In this document: piece after piece, positions 2,849 through 63,971 of the stretch
Position numbering within the stretch: position 1 is the first letter of the stretch
Layout of the letters: each line of letters opens with the position of its first letter
Source of the DNA: Protonemura montana
Taxonomy: Eukaryota; Arthropoda; Insecta; Plecoptera; Nemouridae
DNA: 64,000 nt
Direction of reading: 5' to 3'
NCBI GenBank assembly: GCA_947568835.1
Contig: OX387609.1
Coordinates: forward strand, 2,732,001 to 2,796,000
Notes under the pieces: model-generated
What the model saw: the letters and a program-made list of their open reading frames with translations, nothing else
What the model was told of the DNA's origin: nothing
Databases searched by the model: none
Program-made: the position numbers and the translations under genes

Positions 2849-2867
2849 TAATATTTTGATTGTTGCT

Positions 2868-3655: not shown

Positions 3656-5802
3656 GTCATTATTTTCCACTGACAAATATCGGGAAACAACTGAAACTAG
3701 ATAACAATCAGATGTCATTGCGTGTTGTCAGCTTCGTCATTATGTTTCAACAATAGATACCAATCTTAACACTTTGCACCGAGCTATTTTAGGAACGTTA
3801 TTCTTGGGCACAAAGAAAATAAGTAAATGTTATTTTAGCTTTAACAAGGTCCCATTCACACAAGGTACCTTCAGTATACGAATCTGCCCATGATTTCAAC
3901 TTCATCGATTCTTTGATTTTCCTATTGAACATATATATAAACATATACTTTCCATACTTTTCATACAAATATATACAAATATTAAACTTGAAATTTTCCT
4001 CTATATAAAGTTTAATGTTAAAGTCATAAAGTTTAATGAAATCAAAAAAATATAATAGAATTAGAAATATAATATTTAAAATGTATGGCTATTTATGGAA
4101 TTTATGATAAGTTGTTGCTAATTGATTGTTGAAAACGTAGCGAGAATTTTTTTATTTATTTTGATAGCAAAAATTCAGTTTTCTATCAAAAATAATTGTG
4201 TAACACCCTGACACAGAAAATAACTAAAAAAAGCCATAAAACGGTTATTTTTATCCATCGTTAACATAGAAATAAGAAGCTTGGAGTAAATTCGTATGCA
4301 TTACATTCTTGTACAGATATAACAAAGAATAAAGTCTTCTTCTATGATGTTGACCAAATGACCAGTAGGTAGGCATCTTGATAAAAGACTGATGATGACC
4401 ACCGTATCATGAATTTTAAACTAGTGATCTTTCAAAGTCCTGAACAACACATACGGCTAGAAGGTTGCTACACTTTGACTCTATAGAGATAAATCTTTCA
4501 CAGATTTGCACTGACTGTCTCCAGCATTAGACCATCTTTAACCTCACCAGCCGCCACTGCTTAGAAGACTAGCACCAGCATTAGACAATATATTACCTCA
4601 ACGACCGCCACTGATAAAACGACCAACCTAAATAAAACCCTCGGCCAACTACAAAACATCTTCATGAGGGGTGAATTTAATAATTCCTCGAATTCTTGAT
4701 TATTTCGTGATGCCTTGATGTCTAGCAAGTGAGAGAGAAGATGTGTTTGATGGCAAATTATAGAAAGGGATGTTGAAACGCGTTTGGTTGAAGCGAGATG
4801 GAACTAGAATGCGTTAGAAGTGAAAGAGAGGAGTGTTTGATGATACTAGGGGATGTTGTTAGATTCAGTTCTATGATTGACTCATTTGAGTGCACCCTTT
4901 GACTCGTACACCACCGCAAAATATGAAGCTGTGACCCGATGGTGGAAAGAATTGTTCCTGTTTATGAGGCTACCAATTGTTTGTGTTCGTTTTTTTGTAC
5001 TTTCCAAGAACTGAAATACTGCACGGTTTGTGTATTTAAAAAAAAGGGGGAGAACTATCTGGTGAATTCCGCATTAAATTATTGTTTTTTTGTGTTTTAG
5101 ATAATTTCAAAAAAACTTTGCTTAAATTACATCAAAAACACACGTTTTGATTTTGATTTTATGATTTTGCCTCACAATTTTGGAACACTCTTGCCGAATT
5201 TTGACTTCTTTCACTGTAATTAGAATTGCAACAGACAAAATGCTAAACGTTTACTGTAATTTTGTTCTTTTTTCAAACACCAACAATTCTACGTTTGCCA
5301 CGAGTTTCATTAATCTAATCCTTGGTAATTTTTTAGTTTGTTGCTGTCTGAATTTCTGTTTCCTGCTTTGATGTCGGATGTTTGCTCCAGTGATGCTTGC
5401 TACATTGGTTAGATGTCTCTGTGTATTTTCTCTGCTCTTTGGTCGCCTATAATGATGTCCAGTTTGTATGGGATGTCTCACCAAGCAACTCGTTACTACT
5501 GGACTTTCAGAGCTTACGGACACTAACTAGCTTCCTATCCTCACAAGGACACATTTTTATTTTCGTCGTTACTGAACATCAAAATCATTTTGGTCAAAGT
5601 GAAATCTCTTGCTCATTTCACGGTGTGTTTGTGAACTGATATCTGAAAATTGTGACTGAACATTGCAACAAAAACCAGTTGAAATTATATAAAGTGCAGT
5701 GCATATCATAAAGCCACTTGACAAATATAGCTGACTTCAAGGCGAATTTTTAAACTCATGTCCAGGGTTATAGCCAATCGAATACTTTTATTTTTATCTT
5801 GG
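3656..5802. other. AT-rich DNA; small 51-bp imperfect duplication
   Basis: No gene is recognised. An imperfect direct duplication (CCAGCATTAGAC...CCGCCACTG) lies near 4520 and 4571. Short frames around 5180-5639 overlap on both strands and match nothing I know. Confidence 0.45.
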
Positions 5803-12130: not shown

Positions 12131-12226
12131 CGTTTTGGAAACGGGTTGTTTTTCTCACCTTTTCTTTGTTTTACCTTTACAAACCATTTAAATCGTGGGG
12201 GCTTTAGACATAACCTAGTGTACCTA

Positions 12227-12735
12227 ACGGTTTGCCGTGTTGGAAACACAGGTTCTCTTCAGATCACCGAAGTAAGCAACTCTGCGCTGGGTCAGGTATT
12301 GGATGGGTGACTATCATACATATGACCAGTTCTGTTCGGGAGAGAGGTTGGAGGGATGAAAGTTAAGTAACACTGCGCTGAGTCAGGTCTTGGATGGGTG
12401 ACTATCATACACATGACCAGTTCTGTTCTGGAGAGAGGTTGGAGGGATGAAAGTTAGTACAGCAACTTCACTCGCCTTGCTTATCAACCTCTCGACAGCA
12501 TGGATTTGTGGAGGAATCCTGTTGTTCGCGTTGTACCGTCATTCGGAAGGGACGTTAAGCCGATGGTCCTCTTGGTCTTCGACAGAAGTAGACTACGTAC
12601 CATCACTGGGTATTTCTCGCCTCCCTTCTAGACTAGGTTAGGTTCATCATCATCCTCATCATCATCCACTCATTCACCGACGCCATTAGACTAGTGCCGC
12701 ATGGCCAGATGTCAAAACAGTGCATCGCTAATAAC
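12227..12735 (+). mobile_element. 5S rRNA-derived SINE, two internal units (S1)
   Basis: The head (ACGGTTTGCCGTGTTGGAAA, then GGTTCTCTTCAGATCACCGA) matches the 5S rRNA region ahead of and into the internal control region. Box C-like sequence TTGGATGGGTGAC follows. Two tandem ~91-bp units precede the body (AGTACAGCAACTTCACTCGC...TCGGAAGGGACGTTAAGCCG), a CATCATCATC stretch and the 3' end (GTCAAAACAGTGCATCG). The body includes a 64-codon frame starting MKVSTATSLALLINL that recurs in other copies. Transcription by Pol III from the 5S-type internal promoter is inferred from family knowledge. Confidence 0.85.
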
Positions 12736-12739
12736 TATA

Positions 12740-13867
12740 CATCAATAAATATTAAAAAATACTGTTAAACATTAATTTTAGTTTTAGCAAAAATCTTTTC
12801 TTTTAAAGTAAAAGAAGTGTTTTAAAAAATACACGTACAACTTTTTTGTTAGGTTTATCATTATAATTTTCCGGTTATTTCCACACGAAGAGACCCGTCT
12901 GTATTGTACTCGTGAGGGGTCCAAGTCTATAGACTTAGCAAAAGTCATTATTTTCGATGTCGACGCCGGCAACAGTTTCCTGGCGGCGTCACCCCATGCC
13001 ACGCAGGTTTTGTGTGACGTCAGATCGTTGTTTGACGTGGAATAAAATGAATGGATGCCGCCGAGCGCATTGAATCCCCGCAAGAACCAACAGATGAACC
13101 GTCTAGGAGACTTGGTTCGAATCCCCACGGAGTCCTTTGAGAAAACTGTCAAACAGATTAGAGAAGCCGTAGGAACATAGTGGCGGTGGGGAATGTTGCA
13201 ACTGACGAAACGAGAAATGTTTGGCATTTTTTTCTCTCCGGGACAGGAATGGTATTCAGTTTTGCGGTTTTTTAAATATAATTTCGAAATGATTTCAAGA
13301 TTTTTGGTAAGTTTTTAGAGATATTCAAATGTTTTTACGGTGTTTTTGCCACTTTTTTTTTTAGAGTGATCCAAGTACAATACCTTTTTTTATTTAATGA
13401 TTTAAAATTTTGAAAATATAAAACTTTGTGTTTGGACGTACTTTAAAATGCGTTGGTGTTTTTAAATAGAAAGATCATCCGTTAAAACCAACAAAAATGT
13501 CTGGAAAAAAAAAAATATGTATATATATTTTTTTTCAGCTGCAAAAGTCAAAACCTCGTTAAAACCTAAAAAATTTTCAAAACCTCGTTGGTTGCCGTAC
13601 AATTGGAAAAATCTCAATTAAAAAGTGCCTACAATTCAGCTGTCATTATTTGGTGAGGCGTTAAAGATCAGCGACCAATGTTTCTGAAAAGCATTAACAA
13701 TATGTTTGTGTTCTCATATGAAACTTTCACTGGAATAAACCTACAACATATCACATACTGAAATTCAAGCACCTTTACAAAACAAATCAAAAGTTTAACT
13801 TTTATTAAACAAGCTTGTACAATGTCAAAATATATTTGAATAGTAAACATTCATTACATGTAGCTAG
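12740..13867. other. Non-coding DNA; weak tRNA-like motif
   Basis: Near 13115-13140 the string GGTTCGAATCCCCACGGAGTC has a perfect B-box match but no cloverleaf partner arms. A 147-codon minus-strand frame at 12784-13227 spans this and has no recognisable domain. Several A/T homopolymers lie near 13500-13535. Confidence 0.4.
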
Positions 13868-14552
13868 GTCATGATATACCCGTGGTAACATAAGATAGCA
13901 GAATTGAGAAGCTCTGTCAGGCGATCTCAGCAGCTCCATGGCTACCAAACGTTGAATCTACCATTGAACCTCCTATGCTAGGCATAATATACCCGTGGTA
14001 ACATAAGATAGCAGAATTGAGAAGCTCTGTCAGGCGATCTCAGCATCTCCATGGCTACCAAACGTTGAATCTACCATTGAACCTCCTATGCTAGGCCATG
14101 ATATACCCGTGGTAACATAAGATAGCAGAATTGAGAAGCTCTGTCAGGCGATCTCAGCATCTCCATGGCTACCAAACGTTGAATCTACCATTGAACCTCC
14201 TATGCTAGGCCATGATATACCCGTGGTAACATAAGATAGCAGAATTGAGAAGCTCTGTCAGGCGATCTCAGCATCTCCATGGCTACCAAACGTTGAATCT
14301 ACCATTGAACCTCCTATGCTAGGCCATGATATACCCATGGTAACATAAGATAGCAGAATTGAGAAGCTCTGTCAGGTGATCTCAGCATCTCCATGGCTAC
14401 CAAACGTTGAATCTAACATTGAACCTCCTATGCTAGGTCATGATATTCCCGTGGTAACATAAGATAGCAGATTTGAGAAGCTCTGTCAGGTGATCTCAGC
14501 ATCTCCATGGTTACCAAACGTTGAATCTACCATTGCCTCTCTTTGTATTGCT
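13868..14552 (+). repeat. Family E 114-bp tandem array, six units
   Basis: Unit starts (CATGATATACCCGTGG) fall at about 13870, 13983, 14097, 14211, 14325 and 14439, with a period of 113-114 bp. Units are nearly identical; the first and last differ most. The flank after the array (TTTTGAAGTTAGCAACGAAA) and the last unit are matched by a diverged single copy at 32335-32465, which suggests expansion of one part of a dispersed element. Confidence 0.85.
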
Positions 14553-15640: not shown

Positions 15641-16027
15641 GGCCACCGGCTTAACGTCCCTTCCGAAGGACGGTACAACGTGAACAACAGGATTCCTCCA
15701 CAAATCCATGCTGTCGAGAGGTTGATAAGCAAGGCGAGTGAAGTTGCTGAACTAACTTTCATCCCTCCAACCTCTCTCCCGAACAGAACTGGTCATGTGT
15801 ATTATGGTCACCCATCCAATACCTGACCCAGCGCAGTGTTGCTTAACTTTCATCCCTCCAACCTCTCTCCCGAAGAGAACTGGTCATGTGTATGATGGTC
15901 ACCCATCCAATACCTGCCTCAGCGCAGTGTTACTTAACTTTCATCCCTCCAACCTCTCTCCCAAACAGAACTGGTCATGTGTATTATGGTCACCCATCCA
16001 ATACCTGACTCAGCGCAGTGTTACTTA
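15641..16027 (-). mobile_element. 5S rRNA-derived SINE, three units, both ends truncated (S2)
   Basis: On the minus strand, three 91-bp units (TTCATCCCTCCAACC starts at 15758, 15849 and 15940) are followed by the SINE body as far as the GGACGTTAAGCCGGTGG motif. The 5' head upstream of box A and the 3' tail are both missing. The break at the 5' side falls at a unit boundary. Confidence 0.8.
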
Positions 16028-20956: not shown

Positions 20957-21527
20957 AGAGTCAATGAATCAACGTCAATGTTACGCTTTCTGCTGAGCAA
21001 ACGAGGCCGGCAACACGTGGTGACAGTAGGTACCACCCGATGGCGCTTGCTGCTGAGCAAACGAGGCCGGCAACTCGTGGTGACGGTAGGTGCCACCCGG
21101 TGGCGCTTGCTGCTGAGCAAACGAGGCCGGTAACTCGTGGTGACGGTAGGTGCCACCCGATGGCGCTTGCTGCTGAGCAAACGAGGCCGGCAACACGTGG
21201 TAACGGTAGGTGCCACCCGGTGGCGCTTGCTGCTGAGCAAACGAGGCCGGCAACACGTGGTAACGGTAGGTGCCACCCGATGGCGCTTGCTGCTGAGCAA
21301 ACGAGGCCGGCAACTCGTGGTGACGGTAGGTGCCACCCGGTGGCGCTTGCTGCTGAGCAAACGAGGCCGGTAACTCGTGGTGACGGTAGGTGCCACCCGA
21401 TGGCGCTTGCTGCTGAGCAAACGAGGCCGGCAACTCGTGGTGACGGTAGGTGCCACCCGATGGTCGTCCTTTTTAACAAAGCTCCCACAATTAAATAAAT
21501 ACGATTCAAAATATCGATACATGTTTT
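20957..21527 (+). mobile_element. Family A element with eight 60-bp units (A2)
   Basis: After a left terminus like the other A copies (AGAGTCAATGAATCAACGTC), eight exact-length 60-bp units follow from about 20985 to 21465 (CTGCTGAGCAAACGAGGCCG, then GGTAGGTGCCACCCG). Units alternate A and G after CCACCCG, giving a 120-bp higher-order pattern. The downstream spacer (TTTTTAACAAAGCTCC) is shared with A1, but the copy stops at a poly-G run. Because 60 is divisible by three, frames stay open on both strands; they are repeat artefacts. Confidence 0.8.
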
Positions 21528-21593: not shown

Positions 21594-22811
21594 TGAATTT
21601 TTTATTATTTTTTTTTCATCATTGCAATTTTTTCTCATGTTAGATATTATTCATATTCTAATACACTCTTAAACACCTTGTTTCCTACAACCAATTCTAT
21701 TTTTATCAATATCTTACGTGTAGAAAAGTTTGTACACTGATTTTACTTTTTTTCTTTTTTTTTCAAACTTTAATAATGTTTTTATTTCTCATATCAAACT
21801 AATCAAACTTTTTTTCCAACTACATCTATGTACGAACTAGCTTCAGTAAACATTTCATTCATTTCGGTTCATCGCAACTCTTTTTATAATTTTTACAATT
21901 TCAAAATCGTCAAAACACTTAGCCGAAATTTTCATCTTCTGGAACTTAGCCGAATTTTCTCTTTCCACGACTTAGAAAAGTTTTTAATATTATTATATTT
22001 TGTCTACGAAATTAAGTTTCTTAAAACTCAAAACGATAGTGACTTTATCTAACAGTATTTTCTATTATTATCGTGGTAATGGAGTCATTTGGCGGCCATT
22101 TTTCTAGAAGAAAGTTTAACATCTCAAAGGTAGTATCTACCTATACGGTTCAAATTGTCAATTACATCCTTTTTTTTTTCCATAAGTGATGATTACGAAA
22201 GAAATTATTCCACTATTACAACGTTATAAAATGTTAGCTTTAACCCGCATCCAAGCTGTTCGGCAATCTCAAGTTCTAAAAATGTGAAAACCAATATTCA
22301 GCCTCCACGACCATTTTCCAGCTTGGATGCTAAAATGTTTTTGCCTCGGTGCTCGAATCGCGTCGCTCTCAATCAATATCAACGTCCATCTTTCAAAGCA
22401 CTTGATAATCCAAAACAAAGCTTCACACTTAAGTTCTCAGAGCTTATGTTCAGCTTTTCTCTGGGTTTAATAGCTCATTAGCAATTGCAAATTGAATGTA
22501 CCTATGCCTAATTAAACACGGCTGACAGCTACGATAAGAACAAAACACCTGATGGACAGGTGTGAAATGTCCAAGGGTAAGATGAGAATAGAATTATTTT
22601 GATGGCTGTGACATTGAAGATGTATTTAATTAATTTAATTTACATTTATTGGTGGCTCAAAAGGCAATAAAGGAAAAGTACATATCAATAAATCTGATTA
22701 TAAAACGTTACAGATGAAAGAGAGAAAAAAAGCATGGCACAAATAAATTGTCTATTACAAAAGATGCGTCTTAAGGGGGTTGTTATCTTTGTTACATTGA
22801 TTGCTTATTGT
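21594..22811. other. AT-rich DNA, nothing specific seen
   Basis: A string TCATTTGGCGGCCATTTTTC near 22084 resembles one near 1569 (TCATTTAGCGGACATTTTTC), a possible further shared old repeat. No gene is recognised. Confidence 0.4.
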
Positions 22812-23443
22812 ATTTAACTTAGCACTGTTTTGACATCTGGCCATGTGGCACTGGTCTAATGGCGTCGGTGAAAGAGTAGATGATGATAAGGTCGATGATG
22901 AACATAACTATAACCGAACCTAACCATAACCTAACCTGACCTAGCCTTACTACCTACGCTACGCGCAATTCCTCTACAATTCCATGCTGTCGAGAGGTTG
23001 ATAAGCAAGGCGAGTGAAGTTGCTGTACTAACTTTCATCCCTCCAACCTCTCTCCCGAACAGAACTGGTCATGTGTATGATGGTCACCCATCCAATAACT
23101 GACCCAGCGCAGTGTTGCTTAACTTTCATCTCTCCAACCTCTCTACCGAACAAAACTGGTCATGTGTATGATGGTCACCCATCCAATACTTGACCCAGTG
23201 CAGTGTTGCTTAACTTTCATCCCTCCAACCTCTCTACCGAACAGAACTGGTCATGTGTATGATGATAACCCATCCAATACCTGACTCAGCGCAGTGTTGC
23301 TTAACTTTCATCCCTCCAACCTCTCTACCGAACAAAACTGGTCATGTGTATGATGGTCACCCATCCAATACCTGACCCAGCGCAGTGTTGCTTAAGTTCG
23401 GTGATCTCACGAGGACCGGCGTTCCCAAAACACCAAACCGTTC
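22812..23443 (-). mobile_element. 5S rRNA-derived SINE, four units (S3)
   Basis: Read on the minus strand, the 5S-like head (TTCTGTTTGG-type start, CGGTCCTCGTGAGATCACCG) leads into four 91-bp units, the body, the ATCATCATC region and the 3' end (GTCAAAACAGTGCTAAG). The GTTGTACCGTCCTTCGG part of the body is deleted, so the MKVSTATS frame is interrupted early. Unit starts lie near 23034, 23126, 23217 and 23308. Confidence 0.85.
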
Positions 23444-25503: not shown

Positions 25504-26853
25504 TTAGGTCAGATTTTACCGAAATGGTCAACTATAAGTTGGATCTCTAGCTCACAGAAACATCTGAATTTCACTGCATGTGATTGGAAGTCGTCATGGC
25601 AACAGTTTCAACAAAATGTTCAACTATAAGTTGGATCTCTAGCTCACAGAAACATCTGAATTTCACTGCATGTGATTGGAAGTCGTCATGGCAACAGTTT
25701 CAACAAAATGTTCAACTATAAGTTGGATCTCTAGCTCACAGAAACATCTGAATTTCACTGCATGTGATTGGAAGTCGTCATGGCAACAGTTTCAACAAAA
25801 TGTTCAACTATAAGTTGGATCTCTAGCTCACAGAAACATCTGAATTTCACTGCATGTGATTGGAAGTCGTCATGGCAACAGTTTCAAAAAAATGTTCAAC
25901 TATAAGTTGGATCTCTAACTCACAGAAACATCTGAATTTCACTGCATGTGATTGAAAGTCGTCATGGCAACAGTTTCAACAAAATGTTCAACTATAAGTT
26001 GGATCTCTAACTCACAGAAACATCTGAATTTCACTGCATGTGATTGGAAGTCGTCATGGCAACAGTTTCAACAAAATGTTCAACTATAAGTTGGATATCT
26101 AGCTCACAGAAACATCTGAATTTCACTGCATGTGATTGGAAGTCGTCATGGCAACAGTTTCAACAAAATGTTCAACTATAAGTTGGATCTCTAGCTCACA
26201 GAAACATCTGAATTTCACTGCATGTGATTGGAAGTCGTCATGGCAACAGTTTCAACAAAATGTTCAACTATAAGTTGGAACTCTAGCTCACAGAAACATC
26301 TGAATTTCACTGCATGTGATTGGAAGTCGTCATGGCAACAGTTTCAACAAAATGTTCAACTATAAGTTGGATCTCTAGCTCACAGAAACATCTGAATTTC
26401 ACTGCATGTGATTGGAAGTCGTCATGGCAACAGTTTCAACAAAATGTTCAACTATAAGTTGGAACTCTAGCTCACAGAAACATCTGAATTTCACTGCATG
26501 TGATTGGAAGTCGTCATGGCAACAGTTTCAACAAAATGTTCAACTATAAGTTGGATCTCTAGCTCACAGAAACATCTGAATTTCACTGCATGTGATTGGA
26601 AGTCGTCATGGCAACAGTTTCAACAAAATGTCCAACTATAAGTTGGATCTCTAGCTCACAGAAACATCTGAATTTCACTGCATGTGATTGGAAGTCGTCA
26701 TGGCAACAGTTTCAACAAAATGTTCAACTATAAGTTGGATCTCTAACTCACAGAAACATCTGAATTTCACTGCATGTGATTGGAAGTCGTCATGGCAATA
26801 GTTTCTTATAATAATCCAACTAGGAGGCGAGATTTTGGTAAAACCGGATCTTA
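25504..26853 (+). mobile_element. Family B MITE-like element with fourteen 92-bp units (B2)
   Basis: Ends are inverted: TTAGGTCAGATTTTACCGAA at the left and, in reverse complement, TTAAGATCCGGTTTTACCAA at the right. Between them fourteen units (GTTGGATCTCTAGCTCACAG at each start) repeat with an exact 92-bp period from about 25541 to 26800. The GGAGGCGAGATTTTGG segment next to the right end is also found at 44570 and 63320. It is non-coding; an 86-codon frame at its left edge is a repeat artefact. Confidence 0.85.
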
Positions 26854-28880: not shown

Positions 28881-29265
28881 GAACGGTTTGGCGTGTTGGA
28901 AACAACGGTTCTTGTGAGATCACTGAAGTTAAGCAACACTGCGCTGGGACAGGTATTGGATGGGTGAACATCATACACATGACCAGTTCTGTTCGGGAGA
29001 GAGGTTGAAGGGATGAAAGTTAGTACAGCAACTTCATTCGCCTTGCTTATCAACCTCTCGACAGCATGGATTTGTGGAGGAATCCTGTTGTTCGCGTTGT
29101 ACCGTCCTTCGGAAGGGACGTTAAGCCGGTGGTCCCCTTGGTCTTCGACAGGAGTAGGCTACGTGCCGGCTCCAGATAAGCTAGGTGCATCATCATCCAC
29201 TGATTCACCGACATAATCAGACCAGTACCACACGCTGTTGTCAAAACAGTGCGTCGTTAAACTCT
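28881..29265 (+). mobile_element. 5S rRNA-derived SINE, single unit (S4)
   Basis: The head (GAACGGTTTGGCGTGTTGGA) and 5S-like GATCACTGAAGTTAAGCAAC are followed by one copy of the internal unit, the body and the tail (GTCAAAACAGTGCGTCG). It is one of the simplest copies in the window, so useful as a reference for the unexpanded element. A 67-codon frame beginning MKVSTATSFALLINL is intact. Confidence 0.88.
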
Positions 29266-35712: not shown

Positions 35713-38400
35713 AACACAAACCATTGCAAAAATTAAACACCAATTTTTTTTGGTCGCTTAAATTTGAATTTGAAAATAACTTTGATAAGCTTAACACAAC
35801 TTTAAAGTCCTTGTTTAATTTTTTTATTATTATAAACTTAACCAAATTTACAATTATTACTTTGCCAAAAATGTGAATGCATTTCTTTTAAAAAACTCCC
35901 CCTAAATCGTTGTCAAGGTGAAATCACAATGACTTTCAATTTCCCATGGCTGCAGCCAATTTGTTTCACTAACCATTGTTTAAGATTCTGTCTCTAAAAC
36001 CAGCCGACTAACAACACCGCTATCAGGATACAAACATTTTAAATTAAATTATAATTTTGAATTTATTTTGATTCCATATATTAAACATGAATACAATATT
36101 CTAACGTCTCTATTCCCAAAACACAGCCTGGCAAACAACGTCAATTTCAGTGCAATTAGATCAGCAAACAATTAGTGTCGCTTTAACACGATTTGCAATG
36201 CTGCTTTATGTGTTTTTACTTTTCCAGCGAAGCTAAATCATAAATTAAATTATCTCATAAACTTTTGCCTGAAGCGTTATTAAATTGAACCATAATGCAA
36301 CTCGAGGAATTGCTTGGTAACCTATGAAGAGTTGGGCTAAAAAATGTAGGAATGTTATTCCCATTTGTTCACATTCCGGTGCTGTTTTTTAAAGTCGAGA
36401 CTTAAGAATGCGATGCACTGGAAAAGTTCAGTGGTAAATGCATCTACAGTGCAGTTAAAGCGATGAAATGCAGATGTTTTAATGAGGAATTTAGTAATTT
36501 GGTCGGAAAATTTGCTATAAAAGTTGAACGAGTTTTCAGGTATGTACAAGATTAAAGACGTGTCTTTCTGTTTTTCTGGTTTAATTTTCGTTTAATTTGA
36601 GTAAAAACATAAACATTAACCTAGTTCGTCAGTTATTTAACATTTTTTAGAGGTGGAAATAAAATTGTTATTCTCTATAAAAATCGTGGTATGTGTTTTT
36701 ATAAAAATAAAAGAGTTTGTACACATTTTGTTCTGATTTGCGATATTTGAGCTAAATTTTTAAGAAATTTCTCGAGCACTATTTTACACTTTTCGCTTAA
36801 AGTAGGTTATTAGTTATCAGTTATAAAAATATTATTGGGCAAGCGTAGCAAGCAAAGCTTGCTACAACCGAATTTCAAAGTTTCTTACAGTTTTATTTTC
36901 GGACAGTGGTAGAAAATGTAAGCTGCTTACACATTTTTTTATATTTTTTTGAGCTAACTTTTTATTTTTTTATTTCGATGGTATTTGAATACAAACGGTG
37001 GCCCCTTTTGTTACTCAAACAAATTTTAATTTTCAAGGCTTCAACATATTTTCAGCATTTTTATCGGTTGAATTTTTGACGAGACTGGCACTCCTATAGT
37101 CGAAATCTTTTAACCTAGTGGAGCTTCGTTTTGCAAAGCAATTGGTTCGATGAGTTTGTTTTAAATCTTGATAAAAAAAAAACAATTTTCATTAAAAAAA
37201 CCCTTAAAAAATGCAGTAAATTTGTCAGGGTGAAAGTAACTGGCAAAATGTTTACTATCAGAATTTGAAAAAGTCGTTGGTAAAAGCAAAAATACTGAAA
37301 AAAGCATGAAATGGTAAATAAATAACAACAGAAAATAAGCTTTAATAGTAAAAAATAAACTCTTTCTTGGTTCCCTATCCCTTAAATCAAACCAACTCGA
37401 TCTCAAAAATTAACAATTGTTCAATCATCCGCATCACAGTCCCTATCCTCAATAACTTTATTACTTGCAAAATTTCCATCTCTCACCGTACCTATCTTCA
37501 AGTAGGTCCTCAACCAGCGCTACCCTAGCGCCCCTAGCGTCCAATCTTAGCATAGCATCAACTTAATCTCCCCCAACTCCAACTCCCCTTCTTCAACCCA
37601 ACACCGATCACAATGTTAACCCCGGTGAACCCCCGACCGCTAATAAAACATGATTAACATATGTTTTTCGCACAACGATCGTACGTCCTCTCGAATGCAC
37701 AGAGTGCTTAAACTTTCAGGAATAAATGAATATCATTATCCGTTAACTTCAGCCCTTCATAATGGCGTCTATTTAACTTTATAAGAACAGTATTTGTAGT
37801 TCGTTTAAATCCCCCTCAACTTTGTAATCTGCACACAGCGTCGGTACAAAATGGCGTCGCTTATATGAGTTGTTGCCGCTAAATTAGCATATTAATGCGT
37901 GTGCCACCCACCCACCCACTCTTTATCTATGCGTTTTGCGAAGAAGAATTATTAGCCAAAAGCTGGAGGGCTGAAGATTTTGATGAATTATAATTTTGGC
38001 AAAGAGGTGCGGTGAAAATTGAAGAGATGCGACTATGAAAAGAGGAATTTAAATTTAGTCTTGCGCTCGACTTGTTTTATTTGTAATGTACCCACCGCTT
38101 GCTTTACTTTTTTTCGGAATTTTACTCGATTCTGTTTTCCGAAGGCCGTGGCTTCGCTTGGTTTCAGTGGAGGTGCCAAGTTTGTGTTGAGGGATGCGTT
38201 CAGGGGCAACGGTGGATGAGCCAAGTTTGCTCAGGAGAAAAACTAGCGATCGCTAATTGTTTTATATTTTAAACATTCCAAAAGCTTTTCAAGTATTTTT
38301 TTGACCTATTTTGGGCCAGACTGACCTGATAACGGAACCAAGGAATGAAACCGTTCGGAAATGTATTTATTTTACTTGTTGCTAAACCAAAAAACATCAC
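35713..38400. other. AT-rich DNA; one perfect small hairpin
   Basis: A perfect 9-bp inverted repeat with a 3-nt loop (GTAGCAAGC at 36845 and GCTTGCTAC at 36857) is present. No gene is recognised. The stretch 37440-37640 is C-rich and plus-strand biased. Confidence 0.4.
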
Positions 38401-38842
38401 CGAACGGTTTGGCGTGCTGGAAACACCGGTTCTCGTTAGATCACCGAAGTTAAGCAACACTGCGCTGAGTCAGGTATTGGATGGGTGACCATTATACACA
38501 TGACCAGTTCTGTTCGGGAGAGAGGTTGGAGGGATGAAAGTTAGTACAGCAACTTCACTCGCCTTGCTTATCAACCTCTCGACAGCATGGATTTGTGGAG
38601 GAATCCTGCTGTTCGCGTTGTACCGTCCTTCGGAAGGGACGTTAAGCCGGTGGTCCCCTTGGTGCTCTTCGACAGGAGTAGGCTACGTGCCGGCACCGGG
38701 TTTCCCCTCCTCCCTTCTAGGCTAGGTTAGGTTCATCATCATCCTCATCATCATCCACTCATTCACCGACGCCATTAGACCAGTGCCGCAGGGTCAGTTG
38801 TCAAAACAGTGCGTCGTTAAACACCACAAATAATAATAATAA
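38401..38842 (+). mobile_element. 5S rRNA-derived SINE, single unit, full length (S5)
   Basis: This is the most complete unexpanded copy. The head CGAACGGTTTGGCGTGCTGG leads into ACACCGGTTCTCGTTAGATC and ACCGAAGTTAAGCAACACTG, matching 5S rRNA through box A. TTGGATGGGTGACC matches box C. One internal unit, the full body with a 63-codon MKVSTATSLALLINL frame, a CATCATCATC region and the 3' end GTCAAAACAGTGCGTCG follow, ending in an (AAT)n tail. The tail suggests mobilisation by a LINE using that 3' end, which is inference. Confidence 0.9.
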
Positions 38843-41059
38843 CCAAAAAACATTTTCAATGACGAGAAACTGAAAATAAACCATGTTATAAACATAACCC
38901 TTATTGAGTTAATTGGCAATGTACGTCAGTATTTGTTGGTATGTTGTGCATTCATCAACTACGTTTGATGAAAATATGAAAAATATGAAGAGAAAAATCA
39001 ACGATATCGTTACCAACTGCTAAAATAATGAAATGCTTTATTTAGGTAACACCTATGCGTGTTATTTATACGGAAAATGGTAAATGGATTCTGATCCTCG
39101 TGTGCTTCTGGACTTAGTGGACTTGCTATGTTTATCAATAGTCTGTTGGCCTCCCTTGTCAACCACTGGCATTGTCCAGTCGTATCCACGACCAAGTCCA
39201 GAGTCACATAACAGCTCCAGGATCTGGGACTGGGCACAAAACACTTGGGATGGTCCTCGTTGATTGGTGGAAGCTGCTTGGAAACTGTATCTTCGAGTTC
39301 AAATACACTTTGGGACATGCGTACTCGTTTTTTTTTAATTGTTTGCTAAATATTTTCTCAATAATTAGTTATTCCTTTGTGACTTTTTGTGATCCGTTCA
39401 AAGCTTATCATACAATCGTGAGCTTTGAGTTTGAATTCTTTAACGGTAGTGTACTTAAAAAATAATTGTCACCAAAATAGCATTCTCTTTTGAGAAATAT
39501 CTTTCTCGTTTCGTTGAGCTGAAAGTATAGTTCAAAGTGATTAATTTTGTTTATAGAAATCACATTGAACTTGAGCGTGTTTAAAATTGTTTCCCAGAAA
39601 TCGAACATCTAATTTGAACCGGTGCGAGACTGTTTAGTTTTATAACGCCCCGTTAGGAAGAACTGCCGATTAAAATAAAAATATTGAAAAGTTTTTAAAT
39701 GGTTGTGACCTTCAAATAGTTAATTTAACGGGCCGTTATCATTTAATCCAGACATAACTGACCCTAAATTAAACCGAACAAACAGTCGAATTTCCCACCA
39801 CAAACCTAATTCCATCTTCACAAAAGTGTTCGACAATACTTGTGTCGCCAGCCCCGCGAAACACCACCATTGCAAACATTAATCCTAAGTGCAGGGCAGG
39901 CAACATTCCCGCGTCAGAGTCAATAAACCGAAGCCGCTAAAATCCTACGCAAATTCACGCACCCTACGCGTTGAAAATAATCCAATTTCCTTGGCGCCCA
40001 TCACCGACCCCGAACCACCCTTAAACACACACTCAACCTACGTAATTGACACCCTTGCACCCCATCATTATAATCAAACACGTCGTACCATCTTCATCCC
40101 ACCCATGCACTCCTCCTATCTTCTAGCTCACTCTAACTCACCAGCTGACACTCTTAATCATGATTTATAACCGTTTCTGTCATGCGGTCTCACATTATTA
40201 TAACTTATTCATTTGCCCGAAACGTTTAGTTTTTCCCTTTTTATTATCACGCCTCATTTTTTTTCTCCCACTGAAGCTACTTACAAAATGGTTCCGACTC
40301 AGGAATGTGAACGAGCTGGCTCTTGTTTTTCCGTCTCTCTTTCTTCTTCTCTTTTCCCTTCATCATCATCCTTTTAAGAAGAAGGCAAAAAAAAAACAGT
40401 CGAAACATTCGGATCGATATCAAAAGTCTTTTTACTCTGTCTCTCTTCATGCCGACTTACCGTGCTTCTCTTTCTCTCGTATCTTATTCGGCTTTCCTTT
40501 CTCTATCTCTCCCTTTCCTGCCTACGAAGAAACATAGAAAGACTTTCCGGAAATTGCATCATGAAAAGATAAATTCTTGGCGTGTCTTCGTTGCTGTTCC
40601 TTCTAGCCGTGCAGAGCTGAGGAATATGAAGGGTTTGTGGTTAATTAAATAGCTGCATGAAAGGGGCTTGCCAGTTGCCAACTTGCTGATAAATCAACGT
40701 TTAATTGTGTCCTTAACCAGGATTAATGTATCCTTGAGGATACACCGAGGTGGTGTCTGGATGGAGGAATGAATTTTATTGTTAAGTAATTTCATAAGTA
40801 TGCCCCCTGGTAAAAACATTAATTTTCATTATTTCAACAAAGGGGGAAATTTGTTCGTCGAGTGGATGGCAGGATTTTGTGGGTAATCTTTGACCGAGCC
40901 AGGTAAAAGGTAAATTTAATATCGTACGAAGCTTTTAGAGATTGATATTGTACCTACCGTAGAAATTCACTTGGAAAGAACATAAGGATTTTTTTTCAAC
41001 TATTTCATGCTAAACGTATTGGCTTAAAACACCTTGCTGTTTCGTTGATTTATTGGTTG
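38843..41059. other. Non-coding DNA; unassigned frames
   Basis: Frames at 39010-39465 on both strands and two overlapping frames at 40160-40652 (low complexity, S/F/L-rich) lack recognisable domains. A decayed GTTAA-rich segment near 39640-39765 might be an old family C copy. Confidence 0.4.
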
Positions 41060-42047
41060 TGTTTAACGACGCACTGTTTTGATAACTGGCTCTGTAGCAG
41101 GTCCGTCAAGTTAGTCCCCCAATTTTCAAATCATGATTTTTTTTTTGCGAATCTTTTTGAGCTCTTTTTTTTTGCTGCTTTCAAAACGGTTAATGATGGA
41201 TGATGATGAACCTAACCTAGCCTAGAAGGGAGGATGGGACACCCGGTACCGGTACGTAGCCTACTTCTGTCGAAGACCAAGGGGACCGCCGGCTTAACGT
41301 TCCTTCCGAAGGACGGTACAACGCGAACAGCAGGATTCCTCCACAAATCCATGCTGTCGTGAGGTTGATATGCAAGGCGAGTGAAGTTGCTGTACTAACT
41401 TTCATCCCTCCAACCTCTCTCCCGTACAGAACTGGTCATGTGTATGATGGTCACCCATCCAATACCTGACCCAGCGCAGTGTTGCTTAACTTTCATCCCT
41501 CCAACCTCTCTCCCGAACAGAACTGGTCATGTGTATGATGGTCACCCATCCAATACCTGTCCCAGCGCAGTGTTGCTTAACTTTCATCCCTCCAACCTCT
41601 CTCCCGAACAGAACTGGTCATGTGTATGATGGTCACCCATCCAATACCTGTCCCAGCGCAGTGTTGCTTATCTTTCATCCCTCTAACCTCTCTCCCAAAC
41701 AGAACTGGTCATGTGTATGATGGTCACCCATCCAATACCTGACCCAGCGCAGTGTTGCTTAACTTTCATCCCTCCAACCTCTCTCCCGAACAGAACTGGT
41801 CATGTGTATGATGGTCACTCATCCACTACCTGACCCAGCGCAGTGTTGCTTAACTTTCATCCCTCCAACCTCTCTCCCGAACAGAACTGGTCATGTGTAT
41901 GATGGTCACTCATCCAATACCTGACCCAGCGCAGTGTTGCTTAACTTTCATCCCTCCAACCTCTCTCCCGAACAGAACTGGTCATGTGTATGATGGTCAC
42001 CCATCCAATACCTGACCTAGCGCAGTATTGCGTAAATTCGGTGATGC
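41060..42047 (-). mobile_element. 5S rRNA-derived SINE with seven 91-bp units (S6)
   Basis: This is the largest expansion in the window. Unit starts (TTCATCCC) fall at 41401, 41492, 41583, 41674, 41765, 41856 and 41947, each exactly 91 bp apart. The body retains a 62-codon MKVSTATSLALHINL frame. About 95 bp near 41100-41195 replaces the usual ATCATCATCC region and looks like an insertion or rearrangement. The 5S head is truncated at the 5' end, near 42047. Confidence 0.88.
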
Positions 42048-43370: not shown

Positions 43371-43481
43371 AATCGTCTCAAAAAGCCAGTGTCCAGATAG
43401 CTCAATTGGTGAGAGCAACACCCGTGACAGGTGGAGATCGGGGTTCGAGTCCCCGTTTGGGCATCAATTTTTGAGACGATT
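43371..43481. repeat. Perfect 14-bp inverted repeat enclosing tRNA-like unit
   Basis: The left arm AATCGTCTCAAAAA (43371-43384) and right arm TTTTTGAGACGATT (43468-43481) are exact reverse complements. They enclose an 83-bp segment almost filled by the tRNA-like sequence at 43391-43463. The arms could be TIRs of a tiny element, or could form a stem extending the tRNA fold. Confidence 0.75.
43391..43463 (+). tRNA. tRNA-like gene or tRNA pseudogene, apparent TGA anticodon
   Basis: A 73-nt cloverleaf folds: a 7-bp acceptor stem (GTCCAGA with TTTGGGC, including two G-T pairs), a 4-bp D stem, a 5-bp anticodon stem with one mismatch at its base (A27-G43), a 4-nt variable loop, a perfect 5-bp T stem (CGGGG/CCCCG) and TTCGAGT in the T loop. 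The A box (TAGCTCAATTGG) is near consensus and the B box (GGTTCGAGTCC) perfect. The seven-base anticodon loop CGTGACA reads TGA but lacks the universal T at position 33, and a serine tRNA would have a long variable arm. So it is probably a tRNA-derived element or pseudogene rather than a working tRNA-Ser. Confidence 0.6.
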
Positions 43482-44555: not shown

Positions 44556-45260
44556 CATGTCTGGTTTTACCTAAATCTCGCCTCCTAGTTGAAGTGTTAA
44601 TTGAAATTGTTGCCATGACGACTTCCAATCACATGCAGTGAAATTCAGATGTTTCTGTGAGCTAGAGATCCAACTTTTAGTTGAACATTTTGTTGAAACT
44701 GTTGCCATGACGACTTCCAATCACATGCAGTGAAATTCAGATGTCTCTGTGAGCTAGAGATCCAACTTATAGTTGAACATTTTGTTGAAACTGTTGCCAT
44801 GGCGACTTCCAATCACATGCAGTGAAATTCAGATGTTTCTGTGAGCTAGAGATCCAACTTATAGTTGAACATTTTGTTGAAACTGTTGCCATGACGACTT
44901 CCAATCACATGCAGTGAAATTCAGATGTTTCTGTGAGCTAGAGATCCAACTTATAGTTGAACATTTTGTTAAAACTGTTGCCATGACGACTTCCAATCAC
45001 ATGCAGTGAAATTCAGATGTTTCTGTGAGCTAGAGATCCAACTTATAGTTGAACATTTTGTTGAAACTGTTGCCATGACGACTTCCAATCACATGCAGTG
45101 AAATTCAGATGTTTCTGTGAGTTAGAGATCCAACTTATAGTTGAACATTTTGTTGAAACTGTTGCCATGACGACTTCCAACCACATGCAGTAAAATTCAG
45201 ATGTTTCTGTGAGCTAGAGATCCAACTTATAGTTGAACATTTTGTTGAAACCCGACCTGA
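44556..45260 (-). mobile_element. Family B element with seven 92-bp units, inverted (B3)
   Basis: This is the reverse orientation of B2. The start CTGGTTTTACCTAAATCTCG matches the right terminus of B2, and the end TTGAAACCCGACCTGA matches the left. Seven units lie between them, with GCTAGAGATCCAACTT-type starts at 44661, 44753, 44845, 44937, 45029, 45121 and 45213, a 92-bp period. Confidence 0.82.
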
Positions 45261-47397: not shown

Positions 47398-47775
47398 AGC
47401 GGCACGTTAAGCAATTAACATACCGTTAAAAAGCAATTTTTTTTTTTGATTGGCCGTTTCCAAGCAAATAAGACATTAACTGACTGTTAAATTCTTAACG
47501 AACGACTGAAAAACCAAGGCTAGTTTGTCAGTAGTTCGTTAAGTAATTAACAGACCGTTATCAAACAAAATACATCTTCTGATTGGCTGTCGCCAAGCAA
47601 ATAAGACATTAACGGACTGTTAAATTCTTAACGAACGACTGAAAATCCAAGGCTAGTTTGTCAGTAGTTAATTAAGTTATTAACAGACCGTTATCAAACA
47701 AAATACATCTTATTATTGGCTGTCGCTAAGCAAATAAGACATTAACGGTCTGTTAAGTTCTTAACGAACAACTTA
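47398..47775. mobile_element. Family C, three tandem copies (C4)
   Basis: Three copies with a period of about 130 bp lie head to tail. Each has a GTTAAGTAATTAACAGACCG-like left half, a CTGATTGGCTGTCGCCAAGC-like centre and a TGTTAAATTCTTAACGAACG right half, joined by CCAAGGCTAGTTTGTCAGTA. Other C loci in the window are single copies. Confidence 0.7.
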
Positions 47776-53042: not shown

Positions 53043-53072
53043 GTTAGGTTAGGTTAGGTAAGGTAAGGTTAG
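53043..53072 (+). repeat. Short TTAGG telomere-type repeat
   Basis: Six 5-bp units in register (GTTAG x3, GTAAG x2, GTTAG) correspond to the arthropod telomere motif TTAGG with two variant units. It is too short to be a telomere and is an interstitial trace or chance low-complexity sequence. Confidence 0.55.
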
Positions 53073-53373
53073 GTGTTTCGGTATTATTTTAGTTTCAGGA
53101 CTGTCTAAAGTATTTTCTACTTTTTCATAACAAATTTAAAACAAATATCAATGAACTCAAATGCTGAAATATCGTTCTTAACACATTTTATTCAAGCAAT
53201 TTTGATGGAAAACGGTTTAAGAAGCAGTTTTTATCACAAAAATAAAACGTCTTTTCTGGGATACTTTACCTTGAGTCTCTTCCTCAAGCGTAGTTTTCCC
53301 CTCAAGAAAAGTAGTTGCCATTTCACCCGCATGTGTGTCTTCCACTCTATCGACATTGGGGTTTCAACAAGCC
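53073..53373. other. AT-rich DNA, nothing specific seen
   Basis: A 93-codon frame at 53151-53432 runs into element A4 and is not credible as a gene. Confidence 0.4.
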
Positions 53374-54484: not shown

Positions 54485-55196
54485 ATTTATTTATTATTTG
54501 TTTGTGGTGTTTAGCGACGCACTATTTTGACAACGGGCCATGCGGCACTGGTCTAATGGCGTCGGTGAATGTGTGGATGATGATGAGGATGATGATAAAC
54601 CAAATCTAGCCTAGAAGGGAGGAGGGGAAACCCGGTGCTGGCACGTGGCCTACTCCTGTCAAAGAGCACCAAGGGGACCACCGGCTTAACGTCCCTTCCG
54701 GAGGACGGTACAACGCGAACAACAGGATTCCTTCACAAATCCATGCTGTCGAGAGGTTGATAAGCGAGGCGAGTGAAGTTGCTGTACTAACTTTCATCCC
54801 TCCAACCTCTCTCCTGAACAGAACTGGTCATGTGTATGATGATCATCCAATACCTGACTCAGCGCAGTGTTGCTTAACTTTCATCCCTCCAACCTCTCTC
54901 CCGAACAGAACTGGTCATGTGTATGATGGTCACCCATCCAATACCTGACTCAGCGCAGTGTTGCTTAACTTTCATCCCTCCAACCTCTCTCCCGAACAGA
55001 ACTGGTCATGTGTATGATGGTCATTCAATACCTGACCCAGCGCAGTGTTGCTTAACTTTCATCCCTCCAACCTCTCTCCCGAACAGAACTGGTCATGTGT
55101 ATGATGGTCACCCATCCAATACCTGACTCAGCGCAGTGTTGCTTAACTTCGGTGATCTAGCAAGAACCGGTGTTTCCAACACGCCAAACCGTTCGG
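54485..55196 (-). mobile_element. 5S rRNA-derived SINE, four units (S7)
   Basis: On the minus strand a full head (CGAACGGTTTGGCGTGTTGG, ACACCGGTTCTTGCTAGATC) leads into four units, two of them carrying short deletions around the box C-like segment. The body follows with a 63-codon MKVSTATSLASLINL frame, the ATCATCATCC region and the 3' end with a T-rich/A-rich tail at 54485-54505. The next element, A5, begins about 10 bp from its 5' end. Confidence 0.88.
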
Positions 55197-56556: not shown

Positions 56557-57013
56557 GGTCACAGCATAAATGTTAAATGTTCTGTTGAGCAAACGAGGCC
56601 GGCAACACGTGGTAACGCTAGGTGCCACCCGATGGCGCTTGCTGCTGAACAAACGAGGCCGGCAACACGTGGTAACGCTAGGTGCCACCCGATAGCCATT
56701 GCTGCTGAGCAAACGAGGCCGGTAACACGTGGTAACGCTAGGTGCCACCCGATGGCGCTCGCAGCCGCCCATTTAAACAAACCACTAATAATTAAAGAAC
56801 CTAAAATAACGCCAAATGTTTATCAATCAATAATGTAAGCATAAACCAGTATTAAATGCAAGTAATCTGCGAGAAATATTTCAATTTAATTTCTTAACTC
56901 TCAAAATGACGTTGATTCCATCTAGTAACATTTACCATTTTTGTCGGTCAAGTTGTCGACCGATTGGTAATTGTTTTATAAAAACAGTTAAACATCAGCG
57001 CTGGTACTCTGAC
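56557..57013 (+). mobile_element. Family A element with three units and both ends (A6)
   Basis: The left end GGTCACAGCATAAATGTTAA leads into three 60-bp units (GCAAACGAGGCCGGCAACAC at each) up to 56760. The spacer (GCAAGTAATCTGCGAGAAAT, TTTTTGTCGGTCAAG) follows, then the right end AACATCAGCGCTGGTACTCT, which pairs with the left ends of other copies. Frames of 73-99 codons across the units on both strands are repeat artefacts. Confidence 0.72.
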
Positions 57014-62735: not shown

Positions 62736-63350
62736 TAAGGCTGGGTTTTACCAAAATGTTCAACTGTAAGTTGGATCTCTAGCTCCCAGAAACATCTGAA
62801 TTTCACTGCATGTGATTGGAAGTCGTCATGGCAACAGTTTCAACAAAATGTTCAACTTTAAGTTGGATCTCTAGCTCACAGAAACATCTGAATTTCACTG
62901 CATGTGATTGGAAGTCGTCATGGCAACAGTTTCAACAAAATGTTCAACTATAAGTTGGATCTCTAGCTCCCAGAAACATCTGAATTTCACTGCATGTGAT
63001 TGGAAGTCGTCATGGCAACAGTTTCAACAAAATGTTCAACTATAAGTTGGATCTCTAGCTCACAGAAACATCTGAATTTCACTGCATGTGATTGGAAGTT
63101 GTCATGGCAACAGTTTCAACAAAATTTTCAACTATAAGTTGGATCTCTAGCTCCCAGAAACATCTGAATTTCACTGCATGTGATTGGAAGTCGTCATGGC
63201 AACAGTTTCAACAAAATGTTCAACTATAAGTTGGATCTCTAGCTCACAGAAACATCTGAATTTCACTGCATGTGATTGGAAGTAGTCATGGCAATAGTTT
63301 TAACAAAAATTCCAACTAGGAGGCGAGATTTTGGTAGAAACTGATCTTAA
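62736..63350 (+). mobile_element. Family B element with six 92-bp units (B4)
   Basis: The ends AAGGCTGGGTTTTACCAAAA and, reverse-complemented, AAGATCAGTTTCTACCAAAA are inverted repeats. Six units with a 92-bp period start at 62773, 62865, 62957, 63049, 63141 and 63233. A substitution (CTCCCAGAAAC instead of CTCACAGAAAC) marks units 1, 3 and 5, giving a 184-bp higher-order pattern. Confidence 0.83.
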
Positions 63351-63817: not shown

Positions 63818-63971
63818 TGTGTTGCTTAACTTGCATCCCTCCAACCTCTCTCCCAAACAGAACTGGTCATGTGTATGATGGTCACCCATCCAATACCTAA
63901 CCCAGCACAGTGTTGCTTAACTTCAGTGATCTCACAAGAACCGGTGTTTGCAACACACCAAACCGTTTGGT
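63818..63971 (-). mobile_element. 5S rRNA-derived SINE, 5' part only (S8)
   Basis: On the minus strand the head (CCAAACGGTTTGGTGTGTTG, ACCGGTTCTTGTGAGATCAC) and one internal unit are present, then the copy stops at the start of a second unit. The body and tail are absent, and the breakpoint lies at the unit boundary. Confidence 0.8.

What the first reader, a model, noticed from the sequence alone, without database searches (positions are those of the whole stretch)
41060..42047. 5S-derived SINE in which the Pol III promoter module is tandemly amplified
In eight SINE loci the 91-bp unit carrying the 5S-type box A (GAAGTTAAGCAAC) and box C (TTGGATGGGTGACC) is present in 1, 1, 1, 2, 3, 4, 4 and 7 copies. 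5S rRNA-headed SINEs (SINE3 type) are known, but serial duplication of the internal control region inside a SINE is unusual. It could create multiple start sites, titrate TFIIIA, or seed a satellite.
Basis: partly seen in the sequence, partly recalled or inferred. Interest (0 to 1): 0.75.

Follow-up and report, generated by a model that had tools for sequence, protein, structure and literature searches.

The report
SINE promoter arrays near chromosome ends
A mobile element whose head comes from the 5S ribosomal RNA gene carries a 91-base stretch, promoter included, that is repeated once to many times, mostly near chromosome ends, where unrelated repeats are also stretched into arrays, so it looks like a local expansion process rather than a promoter innovation.

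Summary
Eight copies of a dispersed 5S-headed element in the window carry 1, 1, 1, 2, 3, 4, 4 and 7 units of a 91-bp segment with 5S box A and box C. The flagged seven-unit copy is on the minus strand with a decayed head: Rfam 5S hits 6 of 8 copies, not this one. It is no one-contig artefact: the genome has 17,521 exact unit-unit and 4,739 exact unit-tail junctions. Of 59 copies examined, 24 have exact flanking direct repeats of 8 bp or more (control 6%), as a SINE should. Unit number follows chromosome position: on C1, 17 of 22 copies below 2.6 Mb are multi-unit against 1 of 28 at 2.6-11.1 Mb, also among low-divergence copies; long arrays on other contigs lie near ends too. Arrays of two unrelated repeats share the zones; promoter boxes are not better conserved than the rest of the unit. 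Best reading: minisatellite-like expansion and exchange of SINE-internal units near chromosome ends, akin to the SINE-derived subtelomeric satellites of reptiles (PMC10702118). Promoter function is not excluded but unsupported.

The parts
41396..42031 (-). array of seven 91-bp units (41396-41486, 41487-41577, 41578-41668, 41669-41759, 41760-41850, 41851-41941, 41942-42031) of the flagged SINE; each holds 5S-type box A, IE and box C plus SINE body
42032..42046 (-). remnant of the 5S head; the rest of the head is lost or diverged
41193..41395 (-). SINE body/tail next to the last unit
41050..41094 (-). SINE 3' end; 41095-41192 between the two tail pieces is not family sequence
12225..12731 (+). 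SINE copy: head, 2 units (12275-12456), tail
15753..16027 (-). SINE copy: 3 units, head lost; tail continues below 15753
22810..23443 (-). SINE copy: head, 4 units (23029-23392), part of tail; 11-bp flanking direct repeat AACAAAGATAA
28881..29274 (+). SINE copy: head, 1 unit (28932-29022), tail
38399..38840 (+). best-preserved single-unit SINE copy (unit 38453-38543), flanked by the 13-bp direct repeat AACCAAAAAACAT; ends approximate
54491..55194 (-). SINE copy: head, 4 units (54788-55143; some 4 bp short), tail
63827..63968 (-). SINE copy: head, 1 unit (63827-63917), no family tail

Best explanation
The finding is a 5S-headed SINE (SINE3 type) of an unnamed eukaryote. A single-unit copy is about 440 bp: a 5S-derived head with box A, IE and box C, then a body and a tail ending in AAT/AATC-like repeats. 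In single-unit copies the 91-bp segment from inside box A into the body is bounded at both ends by the same six bases (AAGTTA). In zones of roughly 2 to 5.5 Mb at contig ends most copies have this segment tandemly multiplied, mainly after insertion, by unequal exchange or slippage between the short direct repeats and then between whole units; units are further shuffled within a locus and, inferred, between loci by ectopic exchange among chromosome ends. The Pol III promoter is in the unit because the flanking microhomology happens to enclose it. Shown: unit-number variation, junctions, position dependence, flanking direct repeats, locus-specific shared variants, arrays of two other repeats in the same zones. 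Inferred: the recombination mechanism, the exchange between loci, the lack of function.
For: Position: C1 copies picked only by the unit-tail junction: 17 of 22 multi-unit below 2.6 Mb, 1 of 28 at 2.6-11.1 Mb, Fisher 4e-8 (cut chosen after seeing the data); with tail divergence at most 5%: 13 of 14 against 1 of 7. The 40 best matches to the seven-unit element lie a median 1.17 Mb from a contig end (max 4.0; random placement 5.3), the 40 best matches to a single-unit copy a median 4.4 Mb (random 5.35); Mann-Whitney 6e-10. Exact last-unit-of-array places: the first 100 of 154, all that are listed, lie within 5.54 Mb of an end. In-situ change: units within a locus differ 3.5%, between loci 4.5%, 0 of 2000 permutations as low; 18 of 26 arrays have variants shared by two or more of their own units and nearly absent elsewhere, e.g. 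in L056 units 3 and 7 share four and units 4 and 8 share two, as after duplication of a four-unit block. Independent insertions: exact direct repeats of at least 8 bp flank 24 of 59 elements (3 of the 24 are simple sequence) against 6.0% of 3422 mismatched flank pairs. Generality: a 92-bp and a 60-bp repeat form arrays in the window (14, 7.1, 6.1 and 8, 3 units); among the C1 loci held, only single degenerate or partial copies were met, all interior (L079, L081, L077); their listed exact arrays are distal (44 and 39 loci, medians 2.06 and 1.59 Mb). Other tandem repeats of period 10 or more cover 12.3% of masked distal C1 flanks against 2.8% of interior ones. A second internal junction (GGGTGACC-ACCGAACGG, 92-bp unit) occurs 930 times, so breakpoints vary. 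No sign of selection on the boxes: array variation 3.0% in the boxes, 2.0% outside, p 0.38.
Against: Pure expansion from one inserted unit is refuted: 23 of 26 arrays mix A and G at unit position 16, which is also split 15 to 15 among 30 single units, and G>A at position 32 is in 8 of 26 arrays but 0 of 30 single units; units came from more than one source, though a lone odd unit could be a new mutation. L041 starts inside a unit (position 47) directly after a perfect 14-bp direct repeat and has seven further full units, so at least two units were probably inserted together, or a partial unit was extended from elsewhere. Array units are closer to consensus (2.1%) than the tails of distal multi-unit copies (4.4%), unlike interior single copies (6.4 and 7.3%), which simple in-situ turnover does not predict. 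Exact single-unit copies (12 of 12) also lean distal, median 2.82 Mb against 5.75 at random, 98 of 5000 simulations as low, and differ only weakly from array copies (p 0.04). L083 is a five-unit copy 9 Mb into C1. No recombination map was available.
Confidence: 0.62

Rival explanations
1. Multi-unit elements are themselves the mobile form: a multi-unit source RNA is reverse transcribed and inserts as an array; arrays sit at chromosome ends because young insertions are kept or targeted there.
For: L041 with truncated first unit and 14-bp direct repeat; multi-unit copies with head and direct repeats, e.g. L047 and L059 (five units, 10 and 9 bp), L004 (seven units, 13 bp); A/G mixed inside 23 of 26 arrays; distal tails are younger (4.4% against 7.3%); exact single-unit copies lean distal; head-type junctions also occur in interiors (9 of 72 listed loci beyond 6 Mb).
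Against: Interior C1 copies are single-unit even when young (1 multi of 7 with tail divergence at most 5%); the 40 best single-unit matches, 96-100% identical, are spread nearly at random; same-index units of 7- and 8-unit arrays are no more alike (4.02%) than different-index units (3.98%); arrays of two unrelated repeats lie in the same zones.
Confidence: 0.24
2. One reading: the internal control region is amplified because extra promoters help the element or the host (more transcription starts, TFIIIA titration).
For: The amplified unit holds box A, IE and box C; neither the unit pair nor the consensus tail has a TTTT terminator; the alternative 92-bp head unit also holds the boxes; one insertion (L041) starts about 45 bp upstream of an inner AGCAAC, near where a 5S-type promoter would start by recall.
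Against: Boxes not more conserved than the rest of the unit in 179 array units; repeats without these boxes form arrays in the same zones; other headless copies start at scattered unit positions (1, 2, 4, 6, 33, 56, 57, 60); amplified copies are confined to zones.
Confidence: 0.06
3. Assembly artefact.
For: Long tandem arrays are error-prone in assembly (general knowledge).
Against: 17,521 exact junctions, with listed array places on C1-C5 and C11-C15; units differ within arrays; unit numbers vary copy by copy, and some arrays have their own flanking direct repeats; single-unit copies assemble in the same zone.
Confidence: 0.02

Closest known systems
SINE-derived satellites (sSat3 and others) of squamate reptiles, Vassetzky et al. 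2023 (PMC10702118; outline and sections 6, 18 and 19 read)
   Same: Tandem units made from an inner part of a SINE including part of its Pol III promoter (snake sSat3: 67-nt unit with box B), thousands of loci in most snakes, variable unit number, subtelomeric preference more pronounced for longer loci while the parent SINE is spread randomly, locus-specific subvariants.
   Different: The snake unit carries box B; here the head is from 5S rRNA and the unit holds box A, IE and box C together; both SINE ends are often kept around the array; the longest array here is about 34 units by junction spacing, against up to about 950 there; arrays of two unrelated repeats lie in the same zones here.
5S-headed SINEs (SINE3), e.g. 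lepidopteran HaSE3, PxSE4/5, CsSE2 (PMC10886601, passages read; PMC3272025 and PMC8010984, search listing only)
   Same: Non-autonomous retroposon with a 5S-derived internal promoter as head.
   Different: The passages read mention no tandem amplification of the promoter segment.
Cla-element of Chironomus (PMC12593919, passages read)
   Same: Insect dispersed element of about 120 bp present as monomers and as tandem clusters of variable length.
   Different: The whole element is the repeat unit; the passages read name no 5S promoter and report no consistent genome-wide link to recombination.
PcH-sat of the limpet Patella, attributed to a Nin-SINE (PMC11121367, abstract read)
   Same: Tandem repeat derived from part of a SINE.
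   Different: Mainly pericentromeric, 179-bp monomer.
Pol III-related satellites in a review table: Xenopus Satellite 1 and Hydromantes Hy/Pol III from SINE-like tRNA regions; mouse SINE B1-derived repeat (PMC9659126, passages read)
   Same: Tandem arrays made from SINE or SINE-like sequence.
   Different: tRNA-related or B1 sequence, not 5S.

Membership tests
5S-headed SINE (SINE3) | head derived from 5S rRNA with box A, IE, box C | tested here: met
   Rfam 5S over the gathering score at 6 of 8 window loci; alignment of head and first unit to the host 5S gene L089
5S-headed SINE (SINE3) | target-site duplications of variable length | tested here: met
   24 of 59 elements with exact direct repeats of 8-15 bp (21 if three simple-sequence ones are left out) against 6.0% of 3422 mismatched pairs
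5S-headed SINE (SINE3) | 3' end shared with a partner LINE | tested here: inconclusive
   3' regions downstream of 5 of 150 listed reverse-transcriptase matches read; none shares the SINE 3' end
5S-headed SINE (SINE3) | transcribed by Pol III | not testable with these tools
   no RNA data; no TTTT in unit pair or consensus tail
SINE-derived satellite (sSat) | tandem units made from a portion of a SINE, variable number | tested here: met
SINE-derived satellite (sSat) | subtelomeric preference, stronger for arrays than for single copies of the parent SINE | tested here: met
   contig ends taken as chromosome ends
SINE-derived satellite (sSat) | unit homogeneity rises with array length | not tested
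   only within- versus between-locus similarity was computed
5S-bearing LTR miniatures (Ajax, Cassandra) | 5S piece held in two LTRs; Ajax makes 5-bp target-site duplications (PMC10886601) | tested here: not met
   varying numbers of head-to-tail 91-bp units and flanking repeats of 8-15 bp
5S rRNA gene array | full-length 5S in each repeat | tested here: not met
   the unit holds only the middle of 5S; listed host 5S genes score 108.7-117.5 bits, SINE heads in the window 38.5-62.1 bits

The most novel reading that the evidence does not exclude
The arrays are working multi-promoter platforms: inner control regions start their own Pol III transcripts, so array copies launch 5'-shortened but still promoter-bearing SINE RNAs (as L041 could be), and arrays of TFIIIA sites near chromosome ends have a chromatin or end-protection role.
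Probability: 0.06. Interest if true: 0.8.

Novelty: new variant of a known kind. Interest (0 to 1): 0.42.

Why it matters
It gives thousands of insertions of one element whose internal repeat number depends on chromosome position, with arrays of two unrelated repeats as companions. That makes a general idea, that chromosome ends turn dispersed repeats into minisatellites, countable element by element, with each insertion's age estimated from its tail. It also extends SINE-derived subtelomeric satellites, described in reptiles, to a 5S-headed SINE in which the promoter's three boxes are multiplied together.

Tried and rejected
Selection on the promoter boxes inside arrays: unsupported. Whole-array inheritance of unit order between 7- and 8-unit copies: no signal. 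Pure in-situ growth from one unit: rejected by mixed variants. Internal starts as the source of headless copies: only L041 fits; other starts are scattered. Subfamily link between unit position 16 and tail or head variants: best p 0.007 among 11 columns tested, not taken as real. Partner LINE: not found in 5 LINE 3' regions; of 4 lone tail-end matches in held loci, two are visibly SINE remnants and none was followed to a LINE. Papers: the listings show no title or abstract start about a 5S-headed SINE with tandem promoter units; several were cut (25 of 67, 15 of 18, 15 of 28 and 10 of 20 papers shown), and the library holds open-licence papers only.

Weak points: contig ends are taken as chromosome ends (C1 starts in a tandem repeat of about 98 bp, with no TTAGG or CCTAA in its first 1,500 bases). 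The C1 sample needs an exact 21-base junction, covers C1 only, and was parsed for the first 50 of 100 listed places of 4,739. For a further part of C1 only coordinate pairs were used (25 head-tail pairs; of the 8 beyond 11 Mb, 6 are single-unit and 2 shorter than a unit; one pair of 2,040 bp joins two elements and was disregarded). Searches list only the first 100 of 930, 197 and 612 places in contig order, another the first 100 of 154; one search lists 12 of 12. score only 40 of 4,061 and 1,286 candidates, picked by similarity to queries of different unit number. The other two repeats were not counted in interiors without selection: three matches of 39-58 bp turned up in SINE-bearing loci. 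One search used 26 arrays of 3 or more units and dropped shorter ones and L001 (same element as in the window); its units include L002-L008, which the tail divergences do not. One interior array (189 bp x 7.7) makes up most of the interior tandem-repeat bases, and three distal loci share one 41-bp repeat. The box-versus-rest test includes the polymorphic position 16. One search left out elements without a nearly full tail (270 positions) or too close to a locus end; its unit number of 40 for L003 counts BLAST pieces of a nested 15-bp repeat, the copy having 7 full units plus part of an eighth in its contiguous array. Unit numbers were typed by hand, counting long partial units at L039, L049 and L056; this does not change the multi/single split.

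Full report
What is there. The window is G000:C12:2732001-2796000 of a 258-Mb genome in 34 contigs. Eight copies of one dispersed element hold 1, 1, 1, 2, 3, 4, 4 and 7 copies of a 91-bp unit. The flagged copy, about 41050-42046 on the minus strand, has seven units, a decayed head and a tail interrupted by about 98 bp of other sequence; no flanking direct repeat was found for it. Box-like matches exceed chance: 25 against 2.57 and 25 against 3.31 expected. Rfam 5S reaches its gathering score at 6 of 8 copies, not at the flagged one or at 15753-16027; the flagged one gives nothing even at E 10.

Element anatomy. A single-unit copy such as 38399-38840 reads: (ACC)GAACGG...GTTAGATCACCGAAGTTA (head), the 91-bp unit AGCAACACTG...GGGATGAAAGTTA, then a body and a tail ending CAGTGCGTCGTTAAACACCACAAAT with AAT/AATC-like repeats. 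The host 5S gene L089 matches the head from TGTTG through box A with one difference in TGTTG(G/A)AAACACC and two at GT(TA/CC)GA, and shares box C exactly; the part after box C is not 5S. The unit is bounded on both sides by AAGTTA: head CCGAAGTTA, unit end ATGAAAGTTA. No TTTT lies in a unit pair or the consensus tail. Exact flanking direct repeats of at least 8 bp are found at 24 of 59 elements (three of them simple sequence) against 6.0% of mismatched pairs, e.g. 14 bp at L043 (2 units), L061 (1 unit) and L041 (truncated first unit plus seven); among copies with a head, 7 of 18 multi-unit and 13 of 25 single-unit ones. This is a SINE with a 5S head.

Genome-wide. Exact junction counts: unit-unit 17,521, unit-tail 4,739, head-unit 3,672. 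The array next to C1:990115 spans about 34 units by junction spacing (22 exact junctions). A second junction, box C joined to the element's start (GGGTGACC-ACCGAACGG), makes a 92-bp unit of whole head plus boxes and occurs 930 times; L095 holds a run of head-type units followed by body-type units. So more than one breakpoint has been used.

Position. Fifty C1 copies, taken in order by their unit-tail junction without regard to unit number: 17 of 22 below 2.6 Mb have two or more full units, 1 of 28 between 2.6 and 11.1 Mb (L083, five units); Fisher 4e-8, the cut being chosen after seeing the data. Restricting to tail divergence at most 5% leaves 13 of 14 against 1 of 7, so age alone does not explain it. 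Beyond C1: the 40 best matches to the seven-unit element lie a median 1.17 Mb from a contig end, those to a single-unit copy 4.4 Mb, close to random. The exact last unit of an array occurs 154 times, the first 100 listed all within 5.54 Mb of an end; the exact single-unit counterpart occurs 12 times, median 2.82 Mb, maximum 7.86, itself more distal than random (98 of 5000 simulations) and only weakly different from the array set (p 0.04). So young copies of both kinds lean distal, but arrays do so far more in the larger comparisons.

Not specific to the promoter. Tandem repeats of period at least 10 outside the SINE cover 12.3% of distal C1 flanks (22 loci) and 2.8% of interior flanks (28 loci), a few arrays weighing heavily in both. 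Two other repeats form arrays in the window, a 92-bp one (25522-26805, 44601-45251, 62745-63308) and a 60-bp one (20984-21463, 56582-56759); in C1-interior loci L079, L081 and L077 partial or degenerate single copies were met (52-, 39- and 58-bp matches), the last with a right flank like that of a window array by eye. Their listed exact arrays are distal: 44 loci, median 2.06 Mb, one beyond 6 Mb; 39 loci, median 1.59 Mb, none beyond 6 Mb. In 179 array units, variation is 3.0% in the boxes and 2.0% outside (p 0.38); in 30 single units 5.0% and 6.6% (p 0.06). Nothing points to selection for promoter function in arrays.

How units multiply. Units within a locus are more alike (3.5%) than between loci (4.5%), 0 of 2000 permutations as low, and 18 of 26 arrays carry variants shared by some of their own units and nearly absent elsewhere; L056 looks like a four-unit block duplication. 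That is in-situ change. But 23 of 26 arrays mix A and G at position 16, split evenly among single units, and a position-32 variant sits in 8 arrays and in none of 30 single units, at differing places in the arrays; array units are closer to consensus than the tails of distal multi-unit copies (2.1% against 4.4%), unlike interior single copies (6.4% against 7.3%). Something also moves units between loci, or multi-unit elements have been inserted as such. L041, which begins inside a unit right after a perfect 14-bp direct repeat, shows that at least one insertion probably brought more than one unit. I favour in-situ expansion plus ectopic exchange in chromosome-end zones (0.62) over retroposition of arrays (0.24); the two can act together.

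Comparison with the known. SINE-derived satellites of squamates (PMC10702118, outline and sections 6, 18, 19 read) share the essentials: an inner SINE segment with a promoter box as tandem unit, thousands of loci, subtelomeric preference of long arrays while the parent SINE is spread randomly. The Chironomus Cla-element (PMC12593919, passages) and Xenopus and Hydromantes satellites from SINE-like tRNA regions (PMC9659126, passages) are further relatives in kind. 5S-headed SINEs are described in Lepidoptera (PMC10886601, passages). The listings showed no report of a 5S-headed SINE with tandem promoter units. So: a new variant of a known kind. The host looks like an arthropod from its 5S sequence and a TTAGG-type repeat at 53043-53074, but that reading is from recall, not from a call.

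Noticed in passing
25522-26805, 44601-45251, 62745-63308: A 92-bp repeat in arrays of 14.0, 7.1 and 6.1 units, unrelated to the SINE; partial single matches in C1-interior loci L079 and L081; the first 100 of 197 exact two-unit places are nearly all distal.
   Followed up: partly
20984-21463, 56582-56759: A 60-bp repeat in arrays of 8 and 3 units; one interior degenerate copy (L077) has a single unit with a similar right flank.
   Followed up: partly
L095 (G000:C1:1224850-1226000): Second type of internal duplication of the same SINE: 92-bp units made of the whole head plus boxes, followed by body-type units; the junction occurs 930 times, with 9 of 72 listed loci beyond 6 Mb from an end, perhaps a dimeric subfamily that moves.
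   Followed up: partly
L003, about 834-1394: Beside a seven-unit SINE array, a nested 15-bp repeat that matches part of the 91-bp unit dozens of times: a minisatellite grown inside the SINE unit.
   Followed up: no
53043-53074: (GTTAG)6.4, a TTAGG-type interstitial repeat (telomere-like by recall).
   Followed up: no
2867-3658, 13863-14535, 47405-47773: Further tandem repeats (46 bp x 17.2, 114 bp x 5.9, 133 bp x 2.8) in the same 64 kb.
   Followed up: no
G000:C11:70-105743: Host 5S genes recur over the first 50 kb with a period of about 9.5 kb and three 5S copies per period on both strands; many of the strongest reverse-transcriptase matches lie in the first 0.93 Mb of the same contig.
   Followed up: no
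43390-43465: tRNA-Ser (anticodon TGA) found by ARAGORN, and a tRNA by Rfam at 43391-43463.
   Followed up: no
L097 (G000:C1:1-1500): C1 begins inside a tandem repeat of about 98 bp; no TTAGG or CCTAA in the first 1,500 bases.
   Followed up: no
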